Positions 16,450 to 49,690 of a stretch of 64,000 nt of DNA are shown piece after piece. The stretch comes from Papaver somniferum. Taxonomy: Eukaryota; Streptophyta; Magnoliopsida; Ranunculales; Papaveraceae. Every line of letters starts with the position of its first letter. Within the stretch, counting starts at the first letter, position 1. The position numbers and the translations under genes are program-made. The notes below the pieces were generated by a model. That model was not told where the DNA came from and ran no database searches. It saw only the letters and a program-made list of their open reading frames with translations. The stretch lies in NCBI RefSeq assembly GCF_003573695.1, contig NC_039359.1:74166783-74230782 (forward strand), given 5' to 3'.

Positions 16450-16860
16450 ACACAGAATCTCTTTTATGATATCGAAGTTGTGAGGGAAATCAACATTCGC
16501 TCTAGTCATCTCGAAACAAGTAACACAGAATACCTCAAAGTGATGAGATGGTGAACGTTGAGGATGAGCACGACAACGTCCTTCAAGGTTGAAGGAGAAA
16601 CATTAACCAACTATTCACTAAACCCAATCTGTATTGCATACCATTTTCATATACTTAACATTGTTCGGGATAGCAAAGCGAAAACCAACTCGAATCCCCT
16701 CCAAGGTGTGATAGAACTCTGAAAACCCATGAACAGGAGCCCCAGATATAGCAGCAATGGTATGACCATCGTCACACCGCAAGATTTTCCCATACCCATC
16801 ATATCCTCCATTATTCACTAACATGTCAATAACTGCTTGTTTTGATCCTTCGAACAAAAA
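16450..16860 (-). pseudogene. RNase H-like (RVT_3) fragment, LINE-type
   Basis: On the minus strand a 79-codon open stretch (16857-16618) reads NNGGYDGYGKILRCDDG, then GFSEFYHTLEGIRVGFRFA and VKYMKMVCNTDWV, matching the RVT_3 core (G.GkilRdd.G, E-containing helix, v.D.dwV). Frame-broken continuation to about 16450 is consistent with the same domain. It is smaller than a LINE ORF and has no polymerase domain, so it is a fragment. It is opposite in strand to the LINE at 14.2 kb and therefore a separate insertion. Confidence 0.6.
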
Positions 16861-16914
16861 AATGAAAAATAAATTACATAGTTGGAAGGATTATGCTTGT
16901 TTAAAATACCTAGG

Positions 16915-19545
16915 TATCTCTTCCCTTTAAAAAAAGAAAAAAAAAAGAAAAGAAGGAAAACACATTAGCATACGTTACACCAACTAAAACACCTCCCAGT
17001 TCAATAGATTATGCTTGTTTGAAACTAGAAATAATGTTGAAATTAGATCTTGTTCTTTTAATCATCAATAAGATTAGATTCAATCGGCAATAAAACTCAC
17101 AACTAAGTTGGATTAAATTTGATTAACTAAACTTCATAACTTGTTTTAGCCTACATGATGATTTGAACAGAATGTTGATAGATCAACTTCGCCAATATTT
17201 GCTTGAAGTTGTTCGTTATCTTTAACCAAGGTTTTACTTTAGCTTCCAATGAACAATTAAAATGAGTTTGGATATTAGTTAAATTTTTTTATAATCCGAA
17301 TTATTATTACCGTTAACAATGTGTGTGTATACATACATACGTTATGAGTATGGCATATAAACTTTTGTATGTATAATATATATTTTATTTTATAATAGAA
17401 TTTTGGAAATGCGTTTTTGATACATGCTTTCAAACATGTATTTTATAAGACATATATACATATGCTTACAAATAAAAGTATAAAAGTTTCGCTCCAATAA
17501 ATATTTCGACCGAGATAAATAAAGAGAAACAATACCTCTCGGTAATATAAGGAAGGTTAATGTAAAATTTATTAAATAATACTCCCTTCGTCCTATTTTA
17601 GATGAAGGTTTAAGTTTTTTTTCTTCTAGTTTTATAATACTCGAAGGTTTTCATATATTCCCACAAAACTACCGACTACGCCCTTGAATTTTGTCTTGGA
17701 ATTAAGAGTTTTTTCTTTTCTTTTAAATGTTTTAACAACAGTTAAAGTGTGTAGACTTGTATTGGCGTAGTGTTACGATCACGACGCCCCCGAGCTTTGT
17801 TGTGAATGCAAAAGAAAGAGAAGACTGTCGGGACACCAACACCGATTATAAAGAGTTTAGTTATTTATTAAGGAATAAGCATACGAGTCTATTTATTGGT
17901 TATTTGTGTAGGACTCAAGTTATTGGTTATTTTCCTCCTAGTATATGTTTCCTTATTGGATATTTGTAAGTTATGTCCTCTATGTATATTCATAGTTTGT
18001 TCTAGGGTTAATCGGGTGAGTTATTTGGGGCTTACTTAAGTTTGCTGGTGACTTAAGTTCTTTTCTTACTACCCTACCCAAATTATCCATATATTGCATA
18101 ACTTGTAATAATAATTAGATTTGTCCAAACAATGAAAAAAATAATCGTAGCATTAACAAAATAATTTCTTGACCTTTTATGCGACATTACAAACTGAAAA
18201 AAAATTGAGATTCATCGCGAACTAATGTCTACAGATCAAATATTTACATGGAAATTGAAGAGGTGCGAAGTGCGCTTGTATGTTAACATGGAAGGTTAAG
18301 GGATGAGAGAGTTGTAGCTTGGAAAAATTATCCCTGAATCCAAGGAGAACCAAAATTTCGGAGGAGTGAGGATGATTATAAGTATCCAACACAAAAACTT
18401 GGTTCGACTTATGGAGAGAATATAACATAAATTATTCATGTGAGAAGAATTTCAGTCAGTTTGTTTTTGGGTTTCTGATAATTTGATGGTGACATCATCT
18501 GAATTCATACAAAGGGACAATATATGACATCAACTGACATCATATGAATATTTCTCTCTCAAGATAGTTTCCGATAATGCTTAATTTACTTTATTCATCG
18601 CACAAGATTATTGTGTTCCCATACACTTTTATCTCTTTTCAATAGTCCGTTAAAAGCAATAACACGTATCCATGGTAATCTAGATGATGATGATCCGTGA
18701 ACTTATAATGTAAAGTGATTTTGAAACATTGGTGCATTTTCTTTTGTGCTCAGTTCTGTACTTTTTATGATTGTTGACGCTTATGTTTAATGGGAAGATA
18801 AAAATTCTTAGGTACTAGGTATTTCCTTCACGGTAGGCCGAAGTGCATGAGTATGTGATCATTCGGTTCTATTCTAATGTTTGTTGCTGCTTATTATGTC
18901 TCCTTTATCCAAAATGTGAAGATGTGTGGGGTAACTTACATATATCAAGTCAGTGAAAGTTAATTTGTTTAAATGTCACAATATATAAAAACAGAATTAG
19001 TATATGCGCGCATCTGAATGTTCTATAGTCATATGTCGTGTATGGTCCATTATATTATGAACATGCCTAAGGCCAAGCATTATGGTAAGCGATTTCTCTT
19101 CGATATAGCTTAATTGTTTCGAAATTCAACTACCATGGTATTCCATATCGCTTTTGAGTAGCGATATCCCTTAGATACATTTAAAAGTTGATCACATCTG
19201 ATCCACTTTATAACTAAGGGAAATCACACGGATACTCAGTTTCCGTGGGATTTTCAACTTTACGGAAACTGAGTATCCTTACAATATTCAACGGATACTC
19301 AGTATCCGTTTTGCACTATTTGCACGGGAACTACGTTTCCATGTTATTTAGCTAAGGTATGTCTTCTTCCCATAGTGAGATGAGTTTTGGACGCATTTCG
19401 CTACGCTTCAAATAAGGGATATCTAAGGAATATCCATTACCATAGTGCTTGGCCTAAAGGGATGGTGATACTTTGTCTCATATTTAGTTCTTTGTTATTG
19501 TTTGGACTTGATTGGTATAGTCATTTGTCATGTATGGTCCATTAT
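16915..19545. repeat. Left copy of a ~2.63-kb direct repeat flanking the CACTA element
   Basis: From tatctcttccc (16915) to ccattat (19545) the sequence matches 28140-30777 collinearly, at roughly 95% identity by eye with scattered substitutions and small indels. It is non-coding and includes a Stowaway-like start (tactcccttcgtcc at 17580) and a Tourist-type MITE at 19071. It does not begin with TG or end with CA, and the outer flanks show no target duplication, so it is not an LTR. Confidence 0.9.
19071..19454. mobile_element. Tourist-like (PIF/Harbinger) MITE, 384 bp
   Basis: Terminal inverted repeats start GGCCAAGCA and extend through a TATGGTAA-like stretch. The 3-bp target-site duplication TAA lies at 19068-19070 and 19455-19457. 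Inside are a palindromic cggatactcag / ctgagtatcc hairpin and no ORF. Ends and TSD fit PIF/Harbinger MITEs. Confidence 0.85.
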
Positions 19546-20169
19546 CACTACACCATTTTTTAGGGATTAGCAACGGAGCCTGGCCGTTGATGAATGGGGT
19601 CGCAACGACAGATCGACGTTGCAAAACACGGTGTTGCATTTTTTTCGCAACGGCGGAAGCTCCATTGCGACTCTTGGTCAACAACAGAGATTCGCAACGT
19701 ACTGTGCCTTTGCGACGCTGTTTATTCGCAACCAAGGTATGTCGTTGCTAAGCTGTTTCTAATTACAGGAATACCCCTACCCGGAACTAAAATGCTATTG
19801 GTTCCGATTCTAATTTACTGGTTCTGGTTCTAATTTACTGGTTCTAATTTAGCAACAGATTGAAGACGTTGCTAATATTTTGCAACATAAAAAAAAGGTC
19901 AAGTCACGATTGACCTGGTCAAAATTTTCCCCCACATTCCCCCCCTTTTAGTTCCCCATATTCATCATTTCCACATATATACATTCATTCATTCATTCAA
20001 CATACAAAACTATATCATGTTATGAAAAATGGATTCTTCAATTGATTTTAACAAAAAGTATGAGTATTTGATACAAATGTATTCTAAGTATCACAAAAAA
20101 CTAGTGTACACATTAGAAACATACTTGGTTCCTAAGTTCAGTTCATGTAAAGTTACGAAATTCCTAAGT

Positions 20170-21057
20170 TCTTCTATCTTAAATCACTATAAGGAGCTAC
20201 ACTTACAAATCTTGCATCTGCTAAGGGACCTAATGGCTGCTGCTTTGTTCTCCAACCTTAATTTTTGATCTCATAATACAACATCATTCAATCAACCTAC
20301 GAATAAAGCATCACAAATTCTTCCAATCAGATAACCAGTATGCTTATAAAAAGATTGAATCAAAAACTAATAAAGAAATAATATGTCGTGCAAGTACAAG
20401 CAGGCAAAATCTGTGAAAATGATGAATATGGGGAACTGGATAAGTTTGTATTGTCTCTAATCCTCCTTCCAATGACCTAAGTTAAAACAATGATATATCA
20501 AAAGCTTGCGCATATAATTGGTGTTCTGTAAAAACATTGAATCTGCACCAGAATTTGGGGATCATCTTGTATCCAGCTGAAGTCAGCCAAATCCTAAATT
20601 AAGCTAGATTCTGTGATATCGTTTTAGGTCTGCACTAGCGTCTTGTAAGCATAATAAACAAAACTATCCCTAAAATTGTTCTTGTTTTATTTAGTACAAA
20701 ACATTCACCAAAATCTTGAGTCTTGACTATACTAAAAATGAAACTAAGAACTAGTGAACTACTAAATAATTTAAGATATATGACATACCATCAATCATCT
20801 TGGTCTCGATGTTGGAAACATCTTTATCATCATTGACACGATCATAACCATAGTGAAGCTTCCATGAATGAGTCTGCTCAACCGTAGAGAGTTCACAATC
20901 CACTGAAAAAATCCAAGTAAATCACTACAAGGAGATACTACATATAAACTTACAAATCTTGCAACTGCTAAGGGATCTAATGGCTGCGGCTTTTTTCTCC
21001 AACCTTTCTTATCTCACAAGAGAGCATCATTCAATAAACCCGCGAAGAAAGCATCAC
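20170..21057. repeat. Internal ~150-200-bp duplication inside the CACTA element
   Basis: Sequence around 20170-20350 (aatcttgcatctgctaaggg ... aaagcatcac) recurs at 20920-21057 and continues after the nested insert at 23884 (aaattcttccaatcagat). The first copy supplies the empty-site sequence that defines the nested insertion precisely. Confidence 0.75.
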
Positions 21058-23883
21058 TTAAAAAGTGAGGGTACCCAAATATAACTCAAGCTAAAACTTT
21101 TCCTACATATAAGTCCTTTCTCCAAAAGTGATTGTCTATGGACTGAGTCGAGACAATACAACTAATCGGTTCACACTTCGTCTGATCATCTATGGATACG
21201 AGATCGAAACAATACAAAAACGAAGTATGTTTACTTGATACAAAGGTTCAGACTTAACGAAACACAATAGGATTGCTTATTAAGTAAATAGGAATCAACG
21301 TTTGTGTAATTTACTTTAATTATAACAAAACAATTATAATGCGGAATATAAAAGTAAATAACACAACAAGATTTTGTTAACGAGGAAACCTCAAATGCAG
21401 AAAAACCCCGGGACCCAGTCCAGAATTGAATACTCTCAGGATTAAGCCGCTACACAAAATTAAACTAACTTCATATAGTTGAGACCAAGTAACTAACCCT
21501 ATAGTTCACCTAGTTCCTTCTGTATTCTCATGCCTCCAACTTATAAATAAGTCACGTACTTGGAACAATTCCTTTGGTTCATATTCCAAACAGTAAAGGA
21601 ACAACAAATCTGTTTGGTATCAACTCTATTCAACCAAGTGATATGAGTCAGACAAAGGATCTTCCGTTTATCTCAACATAAACTCCTTCGTCAGCTCCTT
21701 AGATCTATCTTATATTCAATCACCCAAAGGTAATCGTTTAAGATTAAGCCAACAACACCTTTAATCCGAAGAATCGTGTTGATGCCGATCTACTCAATTA
21801 ATCAATCCAATCTACCACAAGGATAAACCGATTATTAATTGGATCCTCTTTTAGCGAAACAAGTATTGTGCACACCAAAGATTATAAAACCCAAGTCAGA
21901 TCTTCAATATCTTCTTTGTCTTCACATCTTCTTAAATCTTCAATAAAAACCTGCACACAATCAGTTGAATCTCTTGTGATCAATCACACACATAACGGAG
22001 TCTGTTAACAATGGATTATCACAAGATCGTCTTTAGAACTAACAACAGTCTAAAGATCCTTGTCGAAACTCTGAACTAGTTTGAGTGAATCTTATATCAG
22101 AAGAGAAGATTCTCAAGAATAAACAAACTAGGTGCAATCAGATTTCAACTACCGTTAGTCAATCAAATCAATCAAAAACAAAAGATATACCGCAATTATC
22201 TAGTTTCCCACCAACGGTAAACGCTATAGCTTCTCAATCCAAAAGAAGACTTTAAACTGAGCGGACGTAAGAGATTTCGCCTAATTAGGTTACTCTCCTC
22301 TCCGAATAGGCGGCTACACCAGTAACAACAACAAAAAAGTAAATCTGCTGTTACGAAGGATTAGTTTGCTAGATAGGTAAACTTCGAGTATTTATATACA
22401 AGGAAGTTTGGACACCAAGGAATTTCCAAAACCGAAAATATTCTCAAGATATTCATTAAAGCACAGATTCGGTTTTCATAATTCCTGGAAATGCTTTGTC
22501 CAAAAATAATGACCAAAATCTCTCAGAAAATCTAATTAGTAAATGCACATTACTAATTCTGTAATTTCCCTACAAAATTAAATTAATAACCTTAATTAAA
22601 AGATTCTTAACTTACTTATGTTTAGATCCTGGGATTCTCTTCCCTTAGCCGTTAAGGAATGTCTTTGAACAATTAAAGAAATAAACATTCACAACACGTG
22701 TTCAAAGTTTGTCGACATCTTTACTTTGTAAGTTCTCTTTCACACTTACAACCTTGAAACCGATTTGCCACACTTCCAAACAAGTTTGGAATTGGTTCAT
22801 CTGACTTTCAAGAATTATGTGATTGATCAAACCAACATTCAATCACAACCATGGGTTTACGTAACTACCAAAACATGTTTTGGTTCTACCTCCATGTGAG
22901 TACTGTGCATAGTCACACTAGCTTTCCAAAAATTCGGTTGAGTAGGTACTAGGATCGGTTCCCCCCAAATATATGGTATCTAACTTATATGTGTTGCACA
23001 TGTCCGTAGGATCGGTTCCCCTTTGCCTAAAAACGTGTTGCACATGTCCATAGGATCGGTTCCCCTTTCTGCTATAAACCTTGCTGCACCCCATACAAGG
23101 ATCGGTTACCTTTGATGTATTTCACCCCTTACAAGGATCGGTTCCCCTTTCCTTTTAATTGGTCAGACATACAAAATCTGTTCATACCACAGGTGATTAC
23201 TTAAAATCGGTTTTACTAATAAAAGTTATATCAATACATAAGTCAGGCCTTTGTGAATAGTTCTACCAAGAAAACAACTAGTTGTGAGCGGTTATACTCG
23301 ATCACACATATTGGTTGTTCATAAGATATGCAATGAATAACAAAACCAATAACACTTGGCAATTTCCTTTTCGGTCCACAAACAAGTTTATGAACTTACT
23401 TCCTTAGAACACATGTAAACATTGTTCCCGAGGATGACATCCTCACCTCATACCCATACATAATCACAATAGCATTCAAATGATTATGGCGATGTCTTAT
23501 CTACAAAGTTTAATGGTTAAGCAATAAACCTCGTATTGTATTCCTTAATACTATGTCTATCTAGAGTTCAAATATGCTTCGCAATTATGTTTTCAATATG
23601 CACGACTTGAAAAATACATTAGGGAATGAAACAGTTCAAGTCAAATATCACTAACCTCAACTGGAAGGATGATTGTGGTCATTGTAGCTCCTTGCTTCTT
23701 CACATCTTCAAGACTTCACAATACTTCTAATGTCTCATATCCTAATACTTTCAAGCTAACCTATATGAAGTTGACTCTAGTACATAATCAAACGACTCTT
23801 AACATGAGTTTTGATTCACTAAAATATGACAACCAAACTTGACATACCAACGCTTGGTGGGTTCAACCGAGCAATGGTCTAAC
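21058..23883 (-). mobile_element. LTR-retrotransposon-derived insert (2,826 bp) with 5-bp TSD
   Basis: The insert is flanked by ATCAC at 21053-21057 and 23884-23888; the undisturbed site is present at 20310. On the minus strand it begins TGTTAGACC, a common LTR start, but its other end (..CCCTCACTTTTTAA) does not show the usual CA. It has no long ORF. It contains a conserved block (ttttgttaacgaggaaac at 21374) shared with 63,816, and five copies of a ggatcggttcccc word at 22951-23150. It is a solo LTR or a non-autonomous derivative; the 3' end is uncertain. Confidence 0.6.
22951..23150 (+). repeat. Short interspersed motif ggatcggttcccc (about five copies)
   Basis: The word aggatcggttcccc occurs with small variation about five times within 200 bases at irregular spacing, each followed by pyrimidine-rich sequence, inside the LTR-derived insert. 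Confidence 0.7.
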
Positions 23884-24149
23884 AATCACAAATTCTTCCA
23901 ATCAGATATCGCAGCGAGCGTTTATAGAGCCAATTTAGTGTAATAACTGGATTAACATATTGGATAAGTATATAATAAGACAAATAAGAGAATGGAAAAG
24001 AAGCTTACAACAACTGCGAGGCCCATTTGTACTGAGAGGAAGAGCACCTAACAGTGAACTAAAGATGTCATGAAGTCGTACTTGTTAACCCTGCAGAACC
24101 TGATCCATCAATTTGATAATTTCCTAGTGAAGTAAAAGTCCTTACAACT

Positions 24150-27100
24150 ACAATACCTTCCTATAAATTGAGGTACACATCTTAGAAATTAGCAAACGAA
24201 GCTCGTATAAACTGCGCCGGTTTGTAAACTTACGTAAAATTTTGATCGACAAAATGTTTATTGAGAAAAAAACAACAGAATTGGAGAAGACTGCATACCA
24301 CATATTTAGTAAAGAGCTTATCTTTAAGATCTTTGAGAGCCAGTTCCAGGTCTGAAAAAAGTGTGAACTGCACAAATAGAACAAAGAAGATTAAAACAAT
24401 GACATTAAACTAACAGTTTATCTGTTTTGGCAGGCTGAGTAACAGAAAATAGAGAGAGGGCATGCGAAAATGCTATCAAGTAGGACCAACTCACCATCAA
24501 TGTCCAATTGAAAATGAAAGCAACTACAATGCACGTTTCCCCACCAATTACATAAGCTCTTCCCTCTACATGTAAGTGGCCGGTGTACACTCGACGGTGG
24601 TTCTGCTACCTGTCAAAGGATTTGCAAGAATATAAGTGTTAAAAAGTGTCTTTGAGCATCTTATATTTCGAAAAAAAAAACAATCTGTATGCAAACTTAT
24701 GAGCTATTCAATTTTCTCAAACTCTCTTGCATGATGATATGAGTTTTCAGAATCAACCCCTCGAAATATCAGAAGTATTTGTATCATGCTTGCATTCATA
24801 TAAAATGGACCGTCGGTCCGGGGTAAGACAATACTCATGGAGAGTATGGTCCTGACTCCAAACATTCACCCATTGTCTCAACTCAGACAGGTGTGTCAAC
24901 AACTGAAAATGGGATTTCTAGTAGGCAGTCTTGATGAATACTAACTAGACAATCAATTCGGTCATAGAGAAATACAACCAGGGTCAAGTGAGACATCAAC
25001 CCAGCATTCATTACAATTTCCTAAATCCACATATGTACACACATACACAAGGTATTTAAGGATACTTACCCGACACAACGACTGAGAGTATGAAAAGAAA
25101 ATTTTATCTGCCTTCTTTCTCTCTGGATAATGCAGTGGTCTAATCCCGAGCACCCTACAACACTAAATACTCATAGTTTTAGCACCAAATGAATGAGATA
25201 ATGTACAACCAAAATATTTATAAACAACAAAAGATCGGTGCTAAATGTTATAGTAGCACAGTAAAACTTTCTTAAAATAATACTCGTTAAAATAATAAGA
25301 TCTAATATAATAAAATTCTTTAGTCCCAATTAGGCTTGCACAGGTTAAATTTCTTCTCACTAAAATAATAATCTCTCTAAAATAATAATTATTTTCGGTC
25401 CCAAAGCTATTATTTTAAAGAAGTTTTACTGTAGTCTTATATAGGATAAAGATAACATAACATTTTCAAAACCTACAAATCAACGCAGAAAGGTGATAAG
25501 ATGCAAATCTATGCGACTATTGAGGTAAAAATGACCAAAGAGGCTTTCAATGGCCAGTGAACCCAAAAGATCACCAAGGAATTTGCAGACGACAAGGCTA
25601 GTTAAAAATGTACTTTGGTCAAGGTCCTTGTGGGATATTCCTTCGTCTAACAAAATTTCCACCAAGGTTCCCAGTCAAGATACCCATTAGGTTCACAATA
25701 ACAACAACTGAAGATAACTACATAAAAAATAGACATTTTGTTTGATAAACCCTATAAGCTTGAGCAAATAAAGTTTATTTGCTCACCTCGACCATTGTTT
25801 CATGTACAACATTGTCGAGATACTCTCTAGCTTTCACTGCTGCATAAGGCTGAGAAGATAACCATCAGAAAAATAATGAATGACAAGAAATTTAAGAAAG
25901 AAAATATAAGACAAATTCTCCCGCCTTGTAAATCAACTGAAGAATCACATCTACTGCCACCATGAAGTATTAGAGACCAAAATACTGAACACAAATCTTA
26001 AGGGTGAAATATAGGCGCAGAAAGAAAAATATACACGCACTGTATAAGCAGCAATGTGGGGTATGACATACTGCTTATGCAAACAATCTCTATCATTATC
26101 CACTCTAACCGGCATGGACCAAGATAAAATTTCTCTGCAACAATAGCAGCCTTAAGTGCCTAAAGGCTCATGCATTGTGAAGTCAGCAATACTGAGGTAC
26201 TCAAACACATCACAACTACCAACATGGACAAGCTTCCGTCTTCCTTAACCTGGTGCCTAAAGAGCTCATATAGATGCCCTGGGTTCCTTCACAAACTCTT
26301 GTAACACATGAAGTCCAAAAATAAACAATTTTCAAAAGCCAGAGATTAATTAAGATAGACCTAGGCCAACTTAATGCTTAGTTACAGATCTCATTGAAAC
26401 GGGTTGAGATATTTCAAAACATAACAAATTAACAAAATACCTGGTATTATCCTTTTCTACATTATCCAACTTCAAATATAAAATATTAAAGGACAACCAA
26501 AACAATCAAATCAATTTCATAGAAACATAGACCTTCTTAGTTCTTCATAAACCAACTCTGACCAGTTCTTCTTCAAACTCAGATGAACTGAAATATAAAC
26601 AACAAACCATAAAATCAGTTTATAATCTACAACCCAAAAGTATAAATTAAACCCTAAATTGAAAATAGATTAAAATCCCTAAAACAACCTAACAGAAAAC
26701 AATATACCTTATAACTCAAGAAAACCCATCATTTATAACTCTGTAACTTCAATTATTTCAAATCTCAGTCACAACAAATCATCACCACCAGAACTTCATT
26801 TGCACTGCCTTGAGCCAAGTTATGGTCCCTGATACCAACTACCAGTTTTCCATCTCATTCTGTAGCTCTTTCCCGCCCCATTCTTCTCAGCTCACAGCCA
26901 TTCTGCAGCTTCAAAACTCAACTAATGTTGCACAGTACCAGCTCTTGCAATACCAACCACCTTTGGTTCCCTGTAATACAACAGTCCCAATGCATTGTTC
27001 TTCTTCCATCAACAACCACCTCTCTTGGCAAGCAATTAACTTCTTCAACTCATCCTCAGGCTAGGATAACAACCAAAACCCATCAACACTGCACCCGCAA

Positions 27101-27860
27101 CATCAGCTTACAATTCATTCCACCTGGACATCAATAATCTCTATTTCTCACAGTGCACAAACCCATTATAACCACCAGTGCTTCAGATCTGAACCAATGT
27201 ACAACCAATTCCATTTCCAACTCGAATTCAGCATATAACCCATCTCTTGTATCAAATATAATTCATCAGTTCATCTTCATAGTTATCTCTGCTCAAATCT
27301 CTTCTCTTTACTGAATTTTAGCATAAAATCCATGACAATCACCGGCACAACAAATTCTTCTTCCCTATTGCTTATAATCTTCAAACTCAGAAACCCAATG
27401 TTCTTCAGATCTCCAAAGTACTTCAGTTCTTCAACCTTGACAAACCCTAAAATGAAAAAACTAAAATCGTATTAGCTTCACATATCAAACCCTAAATCGA
27501 AAGAGAGAAGAAATTGAAAAACTAAAATCGAGAAAAACAGATTCACAAATGAAATTGAAAAACTGAAATCAAAGATTAAACCTTAAATTAGATAAACTTA
27601 AATGAAACCCTAGGATTTGATAAACTTAAATCAAAATCTCTAAATCCTAGAAACAAAGTCTCTAAACCCTAAAAATCACAACTGAAACCCTAGATATCAA
27701 AATCTCTAAAGCCTAAAAATTACGTCAAAGATTATACCTGGATGTAGGTTTTAGAGATGAAAGAGAATTGAAGTTGTACACGATGATAGATTTCAGAGAT
27801 TGAGAAGAGAAGAAAGAGTTCATAGATGGAGATCAAGATGGAGAGGAGAGGAGAGGATAG
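24150..27860 (-). pseudogene. Unidentified multi-exon gene-like region carried by the CACTA element
   Basis: On the minus strand several short open segments are bounded by plausible splice sites. A 5' leader-like exon at about 27850-27739 has donor CAG|GTATAA. Others are near 26130-26040 (MPVRVDNDRDCLHKQYVIPH), 25850-25790 (PYAAVKAREYLDNVVHETMV), 25670-25480, 25155-25075 (RPLHYPERKKADKIFF), 24600-24485 (VYTGHLHVEGRAYVIGGET) and 24350-24300 (LELALKDLKDKLFTKY). I do not recognise the family. It could be a captured host gene or the element's own decayed gene; joining of the segments is inferred from splice-like edges only. Confidence 0.4.
25259..25431. mobile_element. Mariner-type MITE, 173 bp
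   Basis: The element starts CAGTAAAACTT with a following aaaataata run and ends in the reverse complement, tattattttaaagaagtttt then ACTG. TA follows the right end and CA the left, compatible with a mutated TA duplication. This end sequence is typical of a widespread plant mariner/Emigrant-like MITE. It sits between two of the gene-like segments of the CACTA element. Confidence 0.65.
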
Positions 27861-28139
27861 GAAAGAGTGAGTCCATGCCTCTGTAGTTTGGGATTAACGG
27901 TGGAAAAAAAAGAAAGAAGGCTTGACCAAAGTTTGACTGGGGCGTATTTACCAGTCCTAGTGTTCCCGACCGCACGCGTACTGCGCATGCTTGAACGAAG
28001 CGCGGTTGCTATTTGCAACCTTCCTGCGGCGGTTGCAAAATTCGCAACAGTTATACGCTGTTGTGAAAAATTAGCAACAGAAAATTCGCAACGACGCTAG
28101 TGCCGTGCGAATCTGAGTTGCTAATCCCTTAAAATGGTG

Positions 28140-30777
28140 TATCTCTTCCCTTTAAAAAAAAGAAAAAAAAAAGAAGAAGAAGGAAAACACATTAGCGTAC
28201 GTTACACCAACTAAAACACCTCCCAGTTCAATAGATTATGCTTGTTTGAAACTAGAAATAATGTTGAAATTAGATCTTATTATTTTAATCATCAATAAGA
28301 TTAGATTCAATCGACAATAAAACCCACAACTAAGTTGGATTAAATTTGATTAACTAAACTTCATAACTTGTTTTAGCCTAAATGATGATTTGAACAGAAT
28401 GTTAATAGATCAACTTCGATAATATTTGCTTGAAGTTGTTCATTATCTTTAAACAAGGTTTTACATTAGCTTCCAATGAACAATTAAACTGAGTTTGTAT
28501 ATTAGTTAAAAAATTATTTATAATCCGAAGTATTATTACCTTTAACAATGTGTGTGTATACGTACATCAGTTATGAGTATGGCATATGAGCTTTTGTATG
28601 TTTAATATATATTTTATTTTATAATAGAATTTTGGAAATGCGTTTTTGTCACATGCTTTCAAACATGTCCTTCTTAAGACATATATACATATGCGTACAA
28701 ATAAAAGTATAAAAGTTTCGCTCCAATAAATATTTCGACCGAGCTAAATAAAGAGAAATACCTCTCGGTAATATAAGGCAGGTTAATGTTAAAGTTATTA
28801 AATAATACTCCCTTCATTATATTTTGCATGAAGGTTTAAGTTTTTTTTCTTATAGTTTTATAATACTTGAAGGTTTTCATATATTCCCACAAAACTACCG
28901 ACTACACCCTTGAATTTTGTCTTGGAATTAAGAGTTTTTTCTTTTCTTTTAAATGTTTTAGCAACAGCTAAAGTGTGAAGACTTGTATTGGCGTAGTGTT
29001 CCGATCACGGCACCCGAGATTTGTTGTGACTGCAAAAGAGAGAGAAGACCGTCGGGACACCAACAACCGATTATAAAGAGTCTAGTTATTTATTAAGGAA
29101 TAAGCATACGAGTCTAGTTATTGGTTATTTGTGTAGGACTCAAGTTATTGGTTATTTGTGTCGTAGTATATGTTTCCTTATTGGTTATTTGTAAGTGATG
29201 TACTCTATGTATATTCATAGTTTGTTCTAGGGTTAATCGGGTGAGTTATTTTGGGCTTACTTAAGTTTGTTGGTGACTGAAACTCTTTTCTTACTACCCT
29301 ACCCACATTATCTATATAATACATAACTTGTAATAATAATTTATAACAATTAGATTTGTCCAAACAATGAAAAAAATAATCGTAGCATTAACAAAATAAT
29401 TTCTTGACCTTTTATGCGATATTACAAACTGAAAAAATCGAGATTCATCGCGAACTAATGTCTACAGATCAAATATTTACCTGGAAATTGAAGAGGTGCG
29501 AAGTGTGTTTGTATGTTAACATGGAAAGTTTAGGGATGAGAGAGTTGTAGCTGGGAAAAATTATCCCTGAGTCCAAGGAGAACCAAAATTTCGGAGGAGT
29601 GAGGATGATTATAATTATCCAACACAAAAACTTGGTTTGACTTATGGATAGAATATAACAGAAATTAATGTGACAAGAATTGCAGTCAGTTTGTTTTTGG
29701 GTTTCTGATAATTTGATGGTGACATCATCTGAATTCATACAAAGGGGCAATATATGACATCAACTGACATCATATGAATATTTCTCTCTCAAGATAGTTT
29801 CCGATAATGCTTAATTTACTTTATTCATCGCACAAGATTATTGTGTTCCCATACACTTTTATCTCTTTTTCAATAGTCCGTTAAAACCAATAACATGTTT
29901 CCATGGTAATCTAGATGATGATGATCCGTGAACTTATAATATAAAGTGATTTTGAAACATTGGTGCATTTTCTTTTGTGCTCAGTTCTGTACTTTTTATG
30001 TTTGTTGACGCTTATGTTTAATGGGAAGATAAATATTCCTAGGTACTAGATATTTCATTCACGGTAGGCCTAAGTGCATGAGTATGTGATCATTCCGTTA
30101 TATTCTAATGTTTGTTGCTGCTTATTATGTCTCCTTTATCCAAAAGTTTGAATATGTGTGGGGTAACTTGCATATATCAAGTCAGTAAAAGTTAATTTGT
30201 TTAAATGTCACAATTATAACAACAGAATTAGTATATGCGCGCATCTGAATGTTCTATAGTCATATGTCATGTATGGTCCATTATATTATGAACATGCCTA
30301 AGGCCAAGCATTATGGTAAGCGATTTCTCTTCGATATAACTTGATTGTTTCGAAATCCAACTACTATGGTCCTCGATATCTCTTTTGAGTAGCGATATCC
30401 CTTAGATACATTTAAAAGTTGATCACATCTGATCCACTTTATAACTAAGAAAAATCACACGGATACTCAGTTTCCGTGGGATTTTCAACTTTACGGAAAC
30501 TGAGTATCCTTACAATATTCAACGGATTCTCAATATCCACTTTGCACTATTTGCACGGAAACTACGTTTCCATGTTGTTTAGCTAAGGGATGTCTTCTTC
30601 CCATAATGAGATGAGTTTTGGACGCATTTCGCTATGCTTCAAATAAGGGATATATAAGGAATATCCCTTACCATAGTGCTTGTCCTAAAGGGATGGTGAT
30701 ACTTTGTCTCATCTTTTAGTTCTTTGTTATTGTTTGGACTTGATTGCTATAGTCATTTGTCATGTATGGTCCATTAT
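28140..30777. repeat. Right copy of the ~2.63-kb direct repeat
   Basis: Collinear with 16915-19545 from tatctcttccc to ccattat. After it, unique sequence (actctgattgggg) begins. It lies in the same orientation as the left copy, directly abutting the right end of the CACTA element. Confidence 0.9.
30302..30685. mobile_element. Tourist-like MITE, second copy
   Basis: Same element as at 19071, duplicated with the flanking repeat. The left TIR GGCCAAGCA is intact, while the right end has TTGTCC in place of TTGGCC. TAA flanks remain on both sides. Confidence 0.8.
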
Positions 30778-32248
30778 ACTCTGATTGGGGTTTGTTTATT
30801 TTTCCAAGTAGGTGCTTTGGATCATTTGTTCACATTTTATGGTACCAGCATGGTAATTTATTTTATTATGTGATTGCGTTTTTTTTTTTGGGTTTTGTAG
30901 GCAGCTTGAGTATCCTGTGATATCTTCGACTTTTAAATGTTACCATTTTTTCCAATCCGTGGGTTGTATTATGAAAAGCTAAAAGCTCGCCTCTTAGTTG
31001 GATTTTATTTTTTACTTTTGGATCTTTGAGCCTGACAAATGCTTCTAGAGTTAGGACTGTTATCTCTAGAGTTATTTTCTATTTTAGCAGACCATAAAAG
31101 TGGACCACACACAGAGTATGAAAGGTGTACCAAATGTGATCTAATGAATCTAATTCATGGATCCCTTAAAAAGTCCATCCTTGTCAATCTTATGGTGGTG
31201 GCGCAATGGTCCACATTTGGTTCACGTATTTGGTCCATCTCTAACAAGGTTGGATCTAGATTTATTTTAGTTCAAAAATGTTTTATACTTTCTACAGTTT
31301 TTCCCCATATTATTTTCTTTATGACGTGTCGCGTCCTTACTTTTGCATAACATTCAGTCCAGAACTCATCGATGGCCCAAATGATCCAAGGTTTCCAAAT
31401 GCGGATTTTAGATGTGAACATGGGGGCCATGGGTGGGGTGTGTGTAACAAAGTTAATTTTAGTTGCATATGTTGAGTGGTTTCTTCTTAAAGATCCTACC
31501 ATGTTCTCATTTTTAAATAGGATGCCTTGGTCACTATATATATATAGTTTTTTTAGTTATCTTTTTCTCTCTACTGGTCAACACTATCGAAAGTGACACA
31601 AGAATTTGTTAATGAAGGGATAAAAACTAGTTCTAACTGGAATGCATTAGTGTTTGTACATCTATTCTTTAGTGCTTTCCGGTAAGATGAATAAAGTGTG
31701 GCCCAATTTCAATTTACAAGAACAAATTACTATTTGCCTCTATGTTGCCAATTTTGGTAAGTTATTCTTACATAACTGGATGATCAACAAGGTGTGCATA
31801 TTGGGTATACGTAACCTTGGTAGTTCACGAAGTCAGGTCCACAATGTGTATAAACTGAATATGTTTAACTTTGGTGGTTTGAGAAGTCAAATGGACATAT
31901 ATGAGTACCCCAAGTAGTTTGTGTACTTTTTAGTTCTCTCATATATAAGTTCAGAAACCTTCTCAATAGTCATAGTATACATACCCCTCAACAATTCGTC
32001 TATTGTTAAGAATATTTTATGTGATGTTTTCTTTAGGAAATTTTCAAAGGTCACTTTTAGACAAAAATAATATGTGAACAATAAATTTTTGTTGATTAAG
32101 ATTGCTATTAACTTATATTACTTAAATCATATTTATAGAGTTCAAACAAAACAAGATTGAACTCGAAATTTATTCTTTGCAATATTAAATCTACTAAAAT
32201 CATACTACATAGTCTCATAAAATATAATGATGTATGAGATGAGTAAAT
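30778..32248. other. Intergenic, no supported gene
   Basis: ORFs of up to 103 codons occur (31039-31350) but resemble no family and lack start context. An acceptor-like ttttgtag at 30900 has no recognisable exon behind it. Confidence 0.45.
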
Positions 32249-32645
32249 TGTTAGAACATTGCTCGGTTGAACCCACCAAGTGTTGGTATGTCAAGGTTGG
32301 TTGTCATATTTTAGTATCAAAACTCATAAATCATCTTCGTTAGGTTAGACTAGGAAGTCTAGAAATGTTGAGACATACAAGTATTAATATGTACACCTAA
32401 AGATTCCGAAGACATATCGACATCAAGTGGAAGGATGATGTCTTCGTTGATGTCAATACGTCTTCGGATTCTTCAGGTCTTCAGAGTAATATTTGTATGT
32501 CTCAACATTTCTAGATTACCTAGTATAACCTAACGAAGTTGACTCTAGTAATCTAATAAGCGACTTATGAGTTTTGATACTAAAATATGACAACCAACCT
32601 TGACATACCAACGCTTGGAGTGTTCAACCAAGTAGTTCTATAACA
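32249..32645. repeat. 397-bp near-palindrome built from an LTR end
   Basis: The left arm starts tgttagaacattgctcgg and the right arm ends in its reverse complement ..ctataaca. Complementarity can be followed through ttggtatgtcaa, atattttagt and aaactcat, and further through tgttgagacatac / gtatgtctcaaca, to a centre near 32447. The arm sequence matches the TGTTAG end of the LTR-derived insert at 23883. It looks like two LTR ends joined head to head and would form a long RNA hairpin if transcribed. Confidence 0.8.
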
Positions 32646-34199
32646 ATCTCCGCCTTTGTCAAATTTGGTGACAAAACTCTATTACATATATGGAGAATAC
32701 ACGAATTAAAAGATAACATAACAATCTCTTAACTCATTCTTCATACGCTAGCTTGATTCCAAGTTTCAACAGCACAATAACCTGCACATATTCAAAGTTA
32801 AATATTGTTGCTGACGCATTTGAATAACACAAGTTTTGCTCCCCATAAAGGAAAGCTAGGTAGATATTAAATCTGAAACTATTTGTTATTCCCTTTTGTA
32901 GTATGTAATACTACACAAAAAGATGATATGTTTCTCCCACTTAGTCAATGCTTTACTCTTTTGTTATATATACATATATATTATTCAGCACATATATCCT
33001 TTCTCAGTGATTGTAAATCTCCTGTATACTCCATATATTTCTCCCCCTTTTGTCACAAAATGACCAAGAAATGAAATAATACAAGATCAATCCGAAAAGA
33101 TCTTACAAGTTCATAAGAACTCATACAACCTATAACAGTTAAGCATGAAGGTTTAACATACCATTTTAGATAAGCAATACTAAAACCGAAACTACCTAAG
33201 TAATTTGTTTTAGCACCTTATCAAAGAAACAATTGCTCGAAGCAATTTTTCCTTTGATTTGATAAGTCAGGCTAATATCGGAATTAACTTAGTTACTTAT
33301 CAAGATCCAATTATTCATAAATAATTGTACCTCATTTAGACAAGAAAAAACTAGGTTAGATAATTAGTTTTTTTTTTTTATCAAGGAACCGGTTAGACTT
33401 GAATAATGGTACCTCGTTTTGATAAGCCTAAACTAAGATCAGAATTAACTTAGTTTTTCTTATCATGAATCAATTGGACTAAAGCAATTGAACCTCCTTT
33501 TCGTTACGCAAAAACAAAAAACAAACTTGACTCGGTTTTTCTTAAACAGAACCAATTGAAATATAAAAATTGTGCCATATTTCGTTAAGCAAAAGCAAGA
33601 ATATGCATTTAAATCAACTTTGCTTAACAAGAAAACGATTAATCAAACAAAAATAAGTCATTACCTTACTCTCGATATGACAAACTAAGATCCGATCACC
33701 GATCAAGTTTTCATATCAGGAAACATAATCAAAATAGTTCTTCCCTCGGTTTCCACAACCACTCTCCCCAGAAAGATATGACCTTTAAGCATCGGTTCAA
33801 AATAAAACTCTCTACCTGTGAGTTGTTATTCCCTGCAAGATAAATGAGTAAAATAAAAGACAACCTTTACCAGAGAAAGACCGAAAAAGACTTATAAGTT
33901 ATTACGTGCCGATGTAAAAAGATAAAACTGAAATTCATATGTATACTAAATACACAACTTTTGAAACATAAATTGATAATGGTATAATTGTGACTTCACT
34001 CCTGAGTTTTAATCAATATCTACTTATGATTTACTTATAAAGCATCCCACAAGGTCAGATCCGAGACCTAATATATCAAAAAGTCACATACATCATAAGA
34101 GATAATCATATTATGAGATTAGAAATTTAGGGTTTGATGAAAACCGAAACTGATTCTCATAAACCGAAAGCAAAGCAAAAGAGATAGTCATTCATATCA
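32646..34199. other. LTR-retrotransposon non-coding debris
   Basis: Contains tctccgcctttgtcaaattt and ctcccccttttgtcac, words typical of the region next to Copia-type LTRs in plants, and otherwise AT-rich sequence without ORFs. Confidence 0.45.
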
Positions 34200-35230
34200 A
34201 GCAATGCAATTGTAACTATCAGAATAATGACACAGGAATTTGAAAATAAAAACTATATCATTCATATTATTGATAGTTTGGATAGACTTTGCACATATAT
34301 TGAAGTGAATCAAAAATTGATTAGTCTATTCATCAACTTGAAGAAGTAGATCACTCCTAATGATAAACCATACTTGACTTTCATGAATTAATCCTGGCCC
34401 TTGATATCATTCGCCTCTCCAAAATCTGTGTCAATATCTAAGATAACTTGAAGATTTTTAGGATGCTTTCAGGTAACAAAGGCTAACTGTTTCTTAATAC
34501 AGTTCAATTTCCTACCAAGACGATGGATGAAAAACAAGATATCCTTGTTTTCTTCATCGGAAGTCTGAGAGGAGACAATAATATGTCATTTATTCTGTCC
34601 TCCAATCATCTGGTTGATGGTTCCATTAGAAACAGATTTAGTATTTTTCTGATCACCGAACATATCTACAATTGAGCTCTCACAGAGTTTGGTCATAAGA
34701 CATGGATAACCAATTTTTTTTTAGATATTAATAGCGTAGGGTACTCATCAATCTTAATCATTTGATTAAGGATGATCCCACAAAGATAATTTGTTTATCA
34801 CATTCCATAAGAAATTAAAAGACAAGCTATGAAAACTCCTTTTCCCAGTATGAGTTGTCTCTTGCGCTTGCAAAAAGAGTGACATTATCAAGCTTTCCAG
34901 AAACCCTTAACTCAAAGTACACTTCTTTAGTTGGAAATCTTCCTTTCTCCCAGTCAACCGTTTCTCTAATAAGACGAGTTGAAATGGTAGCCTGATAAAC
35001 TTCATTATCAGTAATCATATGACTATATTTCTCATTGTACTTGATGATGTTTGAAATCACCTAACGATTGACATGGATAAGATTGCAACCAACAAGCGTG
35101 ACAAAGGTACGTTTTTTATGATTAATATTGTGAATATTATCATAGAAAACTCTTACCATCTTAGGTGAATAATTATCAAAATCGTAAGAGTTTTCCGCAA
35201 TATCAATCTTGAATGATCTTCACATAGCTT
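34200..35230 (-). pseudogene. Retrotransposon-associated 'plant transposon protein' remnant
   Basis: On the minus strand, frame-broken sequence around a 77-codon open stretch (35060-34827) reads EKYSHMITDNEVYQATISTR, LIRETVDWEKGRFPTKEVYF and ELRV, preceded by a VRVFYDNIHNIN / TLVGCNLIHV-like segment. The layout resembles the accessory protein found next to many plant gypsy elements (putative plant transposon protein family, cf. PF20167). Several stops separate the pieces, so it is dead. The family name is from memory of layout and not certain. Confidence 0.4.
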
Positions 35231-35673
35231 ACATCTGACACTTCTGAATCAAATCTATTTTATGGGATAATTCTTATTCCTTTGAGAGGTTGATAACTTT
35301 CAAAACATGAACTGTCCACAAATGAAGCAAAATCATGTTTATCATTGATCGTATTAGGAAAACTAATCTTTTCAATATACCTAAAAGGAATATACGGATT
35401 TAAGAGATCCTCATTGGCTAGATCCGAAGTTTTTCCACTTTTGTTTTTTTCCTTTTCCTATAATTTCCAACAAATTTCCTTGTACCGAAAGTAAACAAGA
35501 CACCCTAGTTTTATTACCGACATTTTTCTCTTAAAGTGTTTGCAAAAACAGTACATGAGCATCTCCTTATATATGAAGAGGAGACATCCTTTTTGGGAAA
35601 TTGCTAGGTTTAGGAAACATAGCCGGATTTGGAAATCGATCTCCTTTAAGAAAGATAGATTTTCCTTTTTGGA

Positions 35674-35976
35674 TTAGGCCTTCGAAAAGATTAATTCTAT
35701 ATCCATTACCAAAGATGTGGTTACTCTCTCATCACCCAAAACTTTCGGTAACATTTTCCAGAACCTCAGGATGAAAAAACACACAATGAATTTTTGACCG
35801 GAAATGATTGAGTAGGAGAAGATAAACCCGATCATGAAAAGATATTTAGAGAGAAGATCCTTAGAGTTTTTAATCCGAAAATCCTTTAGTAGATCACATG
35901 CTTCATGGAAGCATTTGTGAGGAGCATGAAGCAGCCCTTTGTTAACACCACGGTTAACAAACAAATTATCTTTCAC
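35674..35976 (-). pseudogene. 100-codon ORF in retrotransposon debris, unknown
   Basis: Open for 100 codons with KGLLHAPHKCFHEACDLLKD near the start and a hydrophobic stretch in the middle (GFIFSYSIISG). No family is recognised. It lies upstream, on the same strand, of the transposon-protein remnant and may belong to the same decayed element. Confidence 0.3.
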
Positions 35977-36149
35977 AGACTCGGGTAGTTACCAAGAATC
36001 AGGGCTATTTCTAGCCACATTGACAGTTTTAATACTGAATCTGTGCTTATATATTTTTGGATGGATGTCATACCAAAATATATTTATTAAGATTTCTCTT
36101 GTTCCCTTTCCAAGAACAAAAATTTTAAAAAGATAATAGTCATGAGATA

Positions 36150-36620
36150 CACACATCAATTTTAGACATAGTGCATGTCATATAGTTATTTGTACTATCA
36201 TTATGACAAAAATCAAACATAGATTCAGTAGTAAAGAACTTGAAATCTTTAGCTATGGCTTCCTTTGCTAGCTTGTCTCCTAAATGTAGATTGGTATTCT
36301 TTTAAACTTAAACTTAAACAACAAAATTAAAACATTTAAACATATACCGGTAGTATTTGATGTTCACTTGAGCCCCCATGGTCCGTGGATGAATATAGGG
36401 AATTTGTGAGCCATTAACAATATTCACAAGATTTTAAGTTCTGGTCCTTGATAATGCAACAGTTGTTTAGATTTAGAACTTTTGCCCAACATAGAGCCTC
36501 CAATAAAAAGCTTTTTAGGGTAGAAGCCCATCCACTCCCTGCTCTGCAGTTCTTCCACTGACTTGTTGCATTGTTAACAGTGATTGCATATCCCAATTTT
36601 ATAGTCATATTCTAAGAAGG
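36150..36620 (-). pseudogene. LINE RNase H (RVT_3) relic
   Basis: The minus-strand ORF 36608-36414 reads LGYAITVNNATSQWKNCRAG, then SFLLEALCWAKVLNLNNCCI and IKD, matching strand 2, the catalytic-Glu helix and the following Asp strand of RVT_3 domains. After a frame change, LGDKLAKEAIAKDFKFF (about 36290-36240) gives the terminal AN.LA..A helix. The polymerase part is absent. Confidence 0.6.
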
Positions 36621-48559: not shown

Positions 48560-49690
48560 CTCAAATGGCCTTGCTAGAAGACCTCCACCAGGTTCCTAAG
48601 AACCTCTACCCAAAAAGGGCTTTTCACCAAATCGGAAGGATGTGGATCAATTTCGAACAATGTCGAAATTTAATCCCAGATACTACTTTAGTCAACATAC
48701 CAGCTGGATTGTCTTTGGTATCAATCTTCACTAGTGCAATGTCTTTTTCTTCAAGAATTTCTCTCACAAAGTGAAACCGTACGTCTATATGTTTGGTTCT
48801 AGCATGATGCACTTGATTCTTAGCCAAATAAATTGCACTTAGACTATCACAATGCACAGGCAGTTGGTCTTGCACAACTCCTAAGTCATCTAGCAATTCG
48901 TGTAACCATATAACCTACTTAAATGCCTCAGTCACTGCCATAGACTCCACATCCGTAGTTGAAAGCACCACAGTAAACTGCAAGATTGATTTCCAACTAA
49001 CTGGTGCCCTTGCTACGGTAAATACATACCCTGTAGTTGAACGTCTCTTGTCCAAATCACCAGCATAGTCAAAATCCACATACCCAACACACAACTGATT
49101 GTTACTTATATCATTCACAAACTCCAAAACAACATCAACTGTACCATAAAGATACCTCAAAATCCATTTCACAGCATGCCAATGTCCCTTACCAGGACAA
49201 TTCATATAACGGCTGACCATACTAACTGCATGTGAAATGTCCGGCCTTGTACATACCATCGTATACATCAAGCTACCAACAGCCTCAGCATATGGGACTT
49301 GGGACATATACGTTCTCTCTTCTTCAGTAGTGGGAGACATACGAGCATTCAACTTAAAATGAGCAGCAAGGGGAGTACTTACAGATTTAGTTCCTTCGTA
49401 GATACCAAACTTCTGTAACACTTTCTTCAAATATTCCTTCTGAGACAAACAAACCTTACCCTTCTCTCTGTCACGTTGAACCTCCATACCAAGAATCTTT
49501 TTAGCCTCTTCCAGATCTTTCATCTCAAACTCAGATGACAACTTGCACTTCAAATTATCGATCTCTTTCTTGTTATTCGATGCAATCAGCATATCATCGA
49601 CATACAAGAGCAAATATATGAAAGATCCATCACGTAGGTTCTTGAAGTATACACAATGGTCATAGTTCTCTATATGATTAGCATAACTTT
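48560..49690 (-). pseudogene. Ty1-copia reverse transcriptase / RNase H C-terminal part, truncated
   Basis: The minus strand begins inside the reverse transcriptase (DHCVYFKNLRDGSFIYLLLY, then the catalytic YVDDM at about 49610) and runs without frame breaks through LSSEFEMKDL, ILGMEVQRD, PYAEAVGSLMYTMVCTRPDI and the RNase H strands (GYVDFDYAGDLDKRRSTTGY) to AVTEAFK. A TAG stop at 48913-48915 then interrupts; the frame continues as VIWLHELLDDLG ... QVHHARTKHIDVRFHFVREI to the polyprotein end near the polypurine tract. The catalytic YVDD and RNase H DFDYAGD acidic sites remain. Everything upstream (gag, protease, integrase) is missing, so the copy is 5'-truncated. Confidence 0.9.

What the first reader, a model, noticed from the sequence alone, without database searches (positions are those of the whole stretch)
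16915..30777. CACTA transposon sits exactly at the junction of a 2.63-kb tandem duplication
Layout is X - A - CACTA - A - Y. The left copy of A ends at TAT directly before the CACTA end, and the right copy begins with tat directly after it. The A/Y border and X/A border also carry TAT. Tandem duplications with the transposon at the junction are the product of alternative (reversed-end) transposition, known for maize Ac/Ds. I know of no equally clear CACTA case, though I cannot search.
Basis: partly seen in the sequence, partly recalled or inferred. Interest (0 to 1): 0.75.

Follow-up and report, generated by a model that had tools for sequence, protein, structure and literature searches.

The report
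Jumping gene at a duplication seam
A plant cut-and-paste transposon sits exactly where two copies of a 2.6-kb stretch meet, and the single-copy ancestor survives elsewhere in the same genome, which suggests that one faulty insertion made the duplication, although a later chance insertion at the seam is not excluded.

Summary
In detail: X - A (16915-19545) - CACTA (19546-28139) - A (28140-30777) - Y. The A copies differ at 133 of 2620 sites, so they are not an assembly echo.

New evidence. (1) A paralogous stretch of the same chromosome carries X-A-Y once, without CACTA; both its borders match the window's outer borders base for base. Single A is ancestral and neither outer border shows a footprint. 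(2) The right end is damaged: 26 of 28 other right ends that could be read keep the 10-base terminus (21 exact, 5 with one substitution); this copy lacks its last 3 bases. (3) Of 10 other resolved copies, 8 have an exact 3-bp target duplication and none has a kilobase flank duplication. (4) The element's terminal branch (2.7%) matches that of the A copies (2.3%, p = 0.25), but only bounds the insertion age from above.

Best reading: one insertion whose ends were joined on two chromatids 2.63 kb apart, left cleanly, right by end joining. Strict reversed-end transposition is weakened (no partner end in the window, no footprint). Main rival: a TAT-microhomology tandem duplication, then ordinary insertion exactly at its seam. 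One natural case; no other accession could be compared.

The parts
16519..16914 (.). X flank, colinear with the paralog up to the X/A border
   Evidence: 10.7% different from the paralog over 394 sites
16915..19545 (+). A-left, first copy of the duplicated segment; begins with the X/A TAT
19546..28139 (+). CACTA-type element, no transposase domain found in the pieces tested; TA at 28140-28141 can be assigned to the element or to A-right
19546..19559 (+). intact left terminus CACTACACCATTTT, directly after TAT
21058..23880 (.). insertion of about 2.8 kb nested in the element, absent from the C5 relative (possible 5-bp target duplication ATCAC, read by eye)
28117..28141 (-). right terminal inverted repeat, truncated: lacks the last 3 bases of the family terminus (5 if TAT is counted as flank)
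28140..30777 (+). A-right, second copy; ends with the A/Y TAT
30778..36444 (.). Y flank, colinear with the paralog from the A/Y border on, with gaps

Best explanation
The duplication and the insertion are one event: an aberrant integration of one CACTA element into X-A-Y after replication (or between homologues). The left end was joined by transposase at the A/Y site (ccatTAT|CACTA) of one chromatid. The right end was not joined to the other side of that cut; after losing 3 bases it was joined to the X/A site, 2.63 kb upstream, of the other, empty chromatid, at a 3-bp microhomology (GTA). Reading through gives X-A-CACTA-A-Y with both outer borders untouched, as if the target site duplication were 2.63 kb long. 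Shown: single-copy ancestor, clean outer borders, intact left and damaged right terminus, matching age bounds. Inferred: that it was one event, on two chromatids, and which end joined first.
For: Paralog with X-A-Y once, no CACTA, and identical borders. A-A divergence (5.1%) is well below A-paralog divergence (10.9 and 11.6%), so the duplication came after the paralogs split. The element lies at the exact seam. The damaged right terminus is expected if that side was closed by end joining. Terminal branch of the element 92 of 3387 sites against 120 of 5198 for the A copies, Fisher p 0.25 (0.47 without CpG sites).
Against: TAT on both sides of the element looks like the ordinary 3-bp target duplication that 8 of 10 other copies have; under this model it is partly coincidence (about 0.02). 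The missing bases can also come from slippage in GTGTAGTGTA at any later time. The closest relative by right end (L014) also has an altered right terminus, of a different kind, so terminal damage is not unique. The age test gives only an upper bound for the insertion. The paralog has an independent partial duplication at the same border, so the place duplicates without this element. No reciprocal deletion or second such case was seen.
Confidence: 0.5

Rival explanations
1. Two unrelated events: a tandem duplication by TAT microhomology gave A-A, then CACTA inserted normally into the TAT of the seam (target duplication TAT/TAT), and later a 5-bp slippage damaged the right end.
For: Explains TAT at all four borders; 8 of 10 other resolved copies have exact 3-bp target duplications; the paralog shows that the locus can duplicate by itself; the age bound allows an insertion after the duplication.
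Against: Needs 1 of about 5269 positions and a separate terminal deletion, when 26 of 28 other readable right ends keep their terminus without an indel.
Confidence: 0.27
2. Two-step, single-element sister chromatid transposition: CACTA first sat at X/A; after replication the left end of one copy and the right end of the sister copy moved together to A/Y, leaving X-A rejoined.
For: By my own derivation it gives X-A-CACTA-A-Y with one element and a pristine A/Y border. Sister chromatid transposition is described for Ac/Ds (PMC3744419, passages), where the passage lists inverted duplications and deletions.
Against: Needs a footprint-free excision at X/A (one search shows none; excisions in rice are described as almost always imprecise, PMC4423477 abstract), two target sites that both read TAT, and does not explain the damaged right end.
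Confidence: 0.12
3. Two CACTA copies once flanked A; reversed-end transposition or unequal crossing over between them made the duplication, and the outer copy or copies were later lost.
For: Known route for Ac/fAc (PMC3744419, passages).
Against: No second exact end in the window and no footprint at either outer border; needs one or two precise losses.
Confidence: 0.08
4. The A copies are the LTRs of a retrotransposon.
For: Two direct repeats flank a mobile element.
Against: A starts TATCTC and ends ATTAT, not TG...CA; the enclosed DNA has its own CACTA termini; the paralog has A once between the same X and Y.
Confidence: 0.01

Closest known systems
Tandem direct duplications by reversed-ends transposition of maize Ac/fAc (PMC3744419; abstract and passages seen)
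   Same: Direct duplication with a cut-and-paste element at the junction; outer target site intact
   Different: Needs two nearby element ends and gives 8-bp hAT target duplications, with duplications reaching 460 kb and 5.3 Mb away; here one CACTA element, 2.63 kb, no partner seen in the window, one truncated terminus
VANDAL21 alternative transposition in Arabidopsis met1 (PMC12312487; abstract and passages seen)
   Same: Alternative transposition proposed outside Ac/Ds
   Different: Mutator-type, two head-to-head elements, somatic; that paper reports no further head-to-head cases in its data
Doppia and the maize R-r complex (Walker et al. 1995; not held; known here only through PMC2686159 and PMC4274372, passages)
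   Same: A CACTA element tied to gene duplication and rearrangement
   Different: As I recall, a complex and partly inverted rearrangement, not one element at a simple direct seam (recalled, not read)
Ordinary CACTA insertion with 3-bp target duplication
   Same: Family termini and TAT on both sides
   Different: The flanks are 2.63-kb copies of each other and the right terminus is truncated

Membership tests
CACTA (En/Spm) transposon superfamily | Terminal inverted repeats beginning CACT(A/G) | tested here: inconclusive
   Left end CACTACACC intact; right end is the inverted repeat but without its last 3 bases. 26 of 28 other readable family right ends keep the terminus, so family membership is not in doubt.
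CACTA (En/Spm) transposon superfamily | 3-bp target site duplication | tested here: inconclusive
   TAT on both sides if the last 5 bases are taken as lost; 8 of 10 other resolved copies have an exact 3-bp repeat.
CACTA (En/Spm) transposon superfamily | CACTA-type transposase in autonomous members | tested here: not met
   No Pfam family above its cut-off in 10 stop-free pieces (10 of 65 listed ORFs given); non-autonomous or decayed copies lack it anyway.
Reversed-ends transposition duplication (Ac/Ds type) | Direct duplication with an element at the junction | tested here: met
Reversed-ends transposition duplication (Ac/Ds type) | A second nearby element end taking part | tested here: not met
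   No second exact end in the 64-kb window; only the window was tested for distant-looking ends, and the capped genome lists show none within 30 Mb on this chromosome.
Reversed-ends transposition duplication (Ac/Ds type) | Target duplication shared with a reciprocal deletion | not testable with these tools
   The reciprocal chromatid is not available.
LTR retrotransposon | TG...CA repeat ends, repeats belonging to one element | tested here: not met
   A starts TAT and ends TAT; solitary A in the paralog between the same flanks.

The most novel reading that the evidence does not exclude
A single CACTA integration can make a kilobase-scale direct duplication in one step, without a partner element, when its two ends are joined to two chromatids at different sites: in effect a 2.63-kb target site duplication. 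CACTA elements would then be duplication makers in ordinary transposition.
Probability: 0.45. Interest if true: 0.62.

Novelty: new variant of a known kind. Interest (0 to 1): 0.42.

Why it matters
Small tandem duplications are raw material for new genes and regulation, and the transposition-made ones that I found in print are Ac/Ds or VANDAL21 cases with element pairs. If single CACTA elements, which are common in large plant genomes, can make them alone, long-read genomes can be scanned for the marks used here: direct duplication, element at the seam, one damaged terminus, pristine outer borders. If the seam insertion is coincidence, the case is ordinary.

Tried and rejected
LTR reading of A: rejected on its ends and on the solitary paralogous A. 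Reversed-end transposition and unequal crossing over between two copies: disfavoured, no second end in the window and no footprint. Dating as a decisive test: failed, because the terminal branch of the element is only an upper bound on insertion age. Transposase search: nothing above a Pfam cut-off in 10 of 65 listed ORFs; two sub-threshold hits, Lin-15B and DUF2652. Coding content: no ORF of 120 aa or more in A or in the element. The genome lists score only the best 40 of 436 and 579 candidates, so closer copies with diverged ends may be missed. The middle of the C5 copy (L073) was fetched and not used. Comparison with another accession or species: none is held by the tools used. Literature: searches listed no paper whose title or abstract start describes a CACTA element at the seam of a direct duplication; I opened passages of seven papers only, and the library lacks most subscription journals.

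Full report
What is there. The window lies at C2:74166783-74230782 of a 2.7-Gb genome in 34283 contigs, which I take to be a plant's; the species was not tested. A-left is 16915-19545 and A-right 28140-30777, in direct orientation, with a CACTA element between them. The copies differ at 133 of 2620 sites, spread along the segment. A has no ORF of 120 aa or more.

Ancestral state. Searching the genome with 601 bp of A gave 7 matches: the two window copies, two near C2:142.24 Mb and three partial ones of 68-83% identity. The stretch C2:142232001-142260000 matches the window's X and Y in order and carries a full A once between them, without CACTA. Around the X/A border (AAATACCTAGGTATCTCTTCCC) and the A/Y border (GGTCCATTATACTCTGA) it is identical to the window's outer borders. 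The A copies differ from the paralog by 10.9% and 11.6% and from each other by 5.1%; with the paralog as outgroup 52 changes fall on A-left and 68 on A-right, of 2599 sites. So the duplication arose in the window's lineage after the paralogs split, and neither outer border shows a footprint.

The element. The left terminus is intact. The right terminus, read inwards, is TACACCATTTTAAGGGATTAGCAAC against CACTACACCATTTTTTAGGGATTAGCAAC on the left. The search with the right 600 bp listed 46 matches, of which 30 were fetched. Of the 29 other right-end loci, 26 keep TGGTGTAGTG without an indel (21 exact, 5 with one substitution), 2 are altered (L014, L041) and 1 (L038) does not reach the end. This copy stops at TGGTGTA, followed by TCTCTTCCC: GTG is missing if TA is assigned to the element, TAGTG if TAT is assigned to the flank. 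The intact joint would read GTGTAGTGTAT, so later slippage can also give the loss. L014, one of the two closest relatives by right end, has its own different damage there. No Pfam family passed its cut-off in 10 of the 65 listed ORFs. A nested insertion of about 2.8 kb (21058-23880) is absent from the C5 relative.

How the family normally inserts. I paired left and right ends of other copies by contig, strand and distance from the two capped match lists. Of 11 pairs tried, 10 were resolved: 8 have an exact adjacent 3-bp repeat (TTG, AGA, TTC, CCA, TAC, TGA, ACC, CAT), one has TCAT on both sides shifted by a base, one matches 2 of 3 (TCA/TCG) (two of the starts, with a mutated first motif, were placed by eye). 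In 9 of 10 the flanks (about 1.5 kb each) share nothing at E 0.001; in one the element lies in an array of about 70-bp units, an ordinary insertion into a tandem array. None has a kilobase duplication with defined outer borders, within the 1.5 kb looked at.

Ages. This copy has 92 private changes in 3387 sites (2.7%: right part 53 of 2064 against L014 and L015, left part 39 of 1323 against L047 and L046); the A copies have 120 in 5198 (2.3%). Fisher p is 0.25, or 0.47 without CpG sites. In two small trees (5 and 9 other copies, chosen for long matches) the terminal branches run from 0.0195 to 0.051; the window copy has 0.029 (right) and 0.037 (left), the A copies 0.023 and 0.030. This fits one event and does not prove it, because the branch bounds the insertion age only from above.

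Mechanism. A model must give clean outer borders, a clean left joint, a damaged right joint, TAT on both sides and exact placement at the seam. One integration with its ends on two chromatids gives all but TAT directly and leaves TAT partly to chance (about 0.02). A TAT-microhomology duplication followed by an ordinary insertion gives TAT for free but needs 1 of about 5269 positions and a separate terminal deletion. Single-element sister chromatid transposition needs a precise excision and matching targets. Strict reversed-end transposition needs a partner, and no second exact end was found in the window.

In print. Reversed-ends transposition makes direct duplications with Ac at the junction in maize (PMC3744419, passages). 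VANDAL21 pairs in Arabidopsis are proposed to do alternative transposition (PMC12312487, passages). In rice, DNA transposon insertions are generally precise and excisions are not (PMC4423477, abstract and passages). Doppia, listed as a CACTA element in PMC2686159 (passages), is tied to the maize R-r allele in PMC4274372 (passages); the primary paper was not held. Metazoan TIR elements duplicate sequence by gap filling (PMC8277862, passages). PMC10462705 reports large tandem duplications in Arabidopsis ddm1 plants, not tied to CACTA in the passages seen. The listings showed no CACTA element at the seam of a direct duplication; this is a search of listings in a library that lacks most subscription journals.

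Against my reading. The paralog has its own extra partial copy of 16808-17487 with an insertion of about 2.3 kb beside the same border, so this place duplicates without this element. One case cannot separate a rare mechanism from a rare coincidence in a genome with many elements and many duplications, and it was picked because it looked striking.

Noticed in passing
L008-L009 (C2:142239484-142242493), equivalent to window 16808-17487: The paralog carries an extra partial copy of the X/A region, split by an insertion of about 2.3 kb that begins near CACTACTGGAAAA, about 20 bp from the same border where the window's duplication starts; no matching inverted end was found for that insertion.
   Followed up: partly
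window 19020-19052 and 19516-19545: The last 30 or so bases of A (tatagtcatttgtcatgtatggtccattat) repeat a stretch about 490 bp upstream inside A, with a hairpin-like insert (AAGGCCAAGCATTATGG ... CCATAGTGCTTGGCCT) between them; read by eye.
   Followed up: no
window 21058-23880: Insertion nested in the CACTA element, containing GGATCGGTTCCCCTTT repeats; its right part (23757-23887) resembles the arms at 32247-32648.
   Followed up: partly
window 32247-32648: Nested inverted repeats (arms of 86 and 96 nt), MITE-like, related to the right part of the insertion inside the CACTA element.
   Followed up: no
L074 / L018 (C8:153.927-153.934 Mb): Another copy of the family lies inside or at the edge of an array of about 70-bp units, with a CAT target duplication.
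   Followed up: partly
window 48915-49688 (-): 257-aa open frame that reads like a Copia-type reverse transcriptase / RNase H (recognised by eye, not searched).
   Followed up: no
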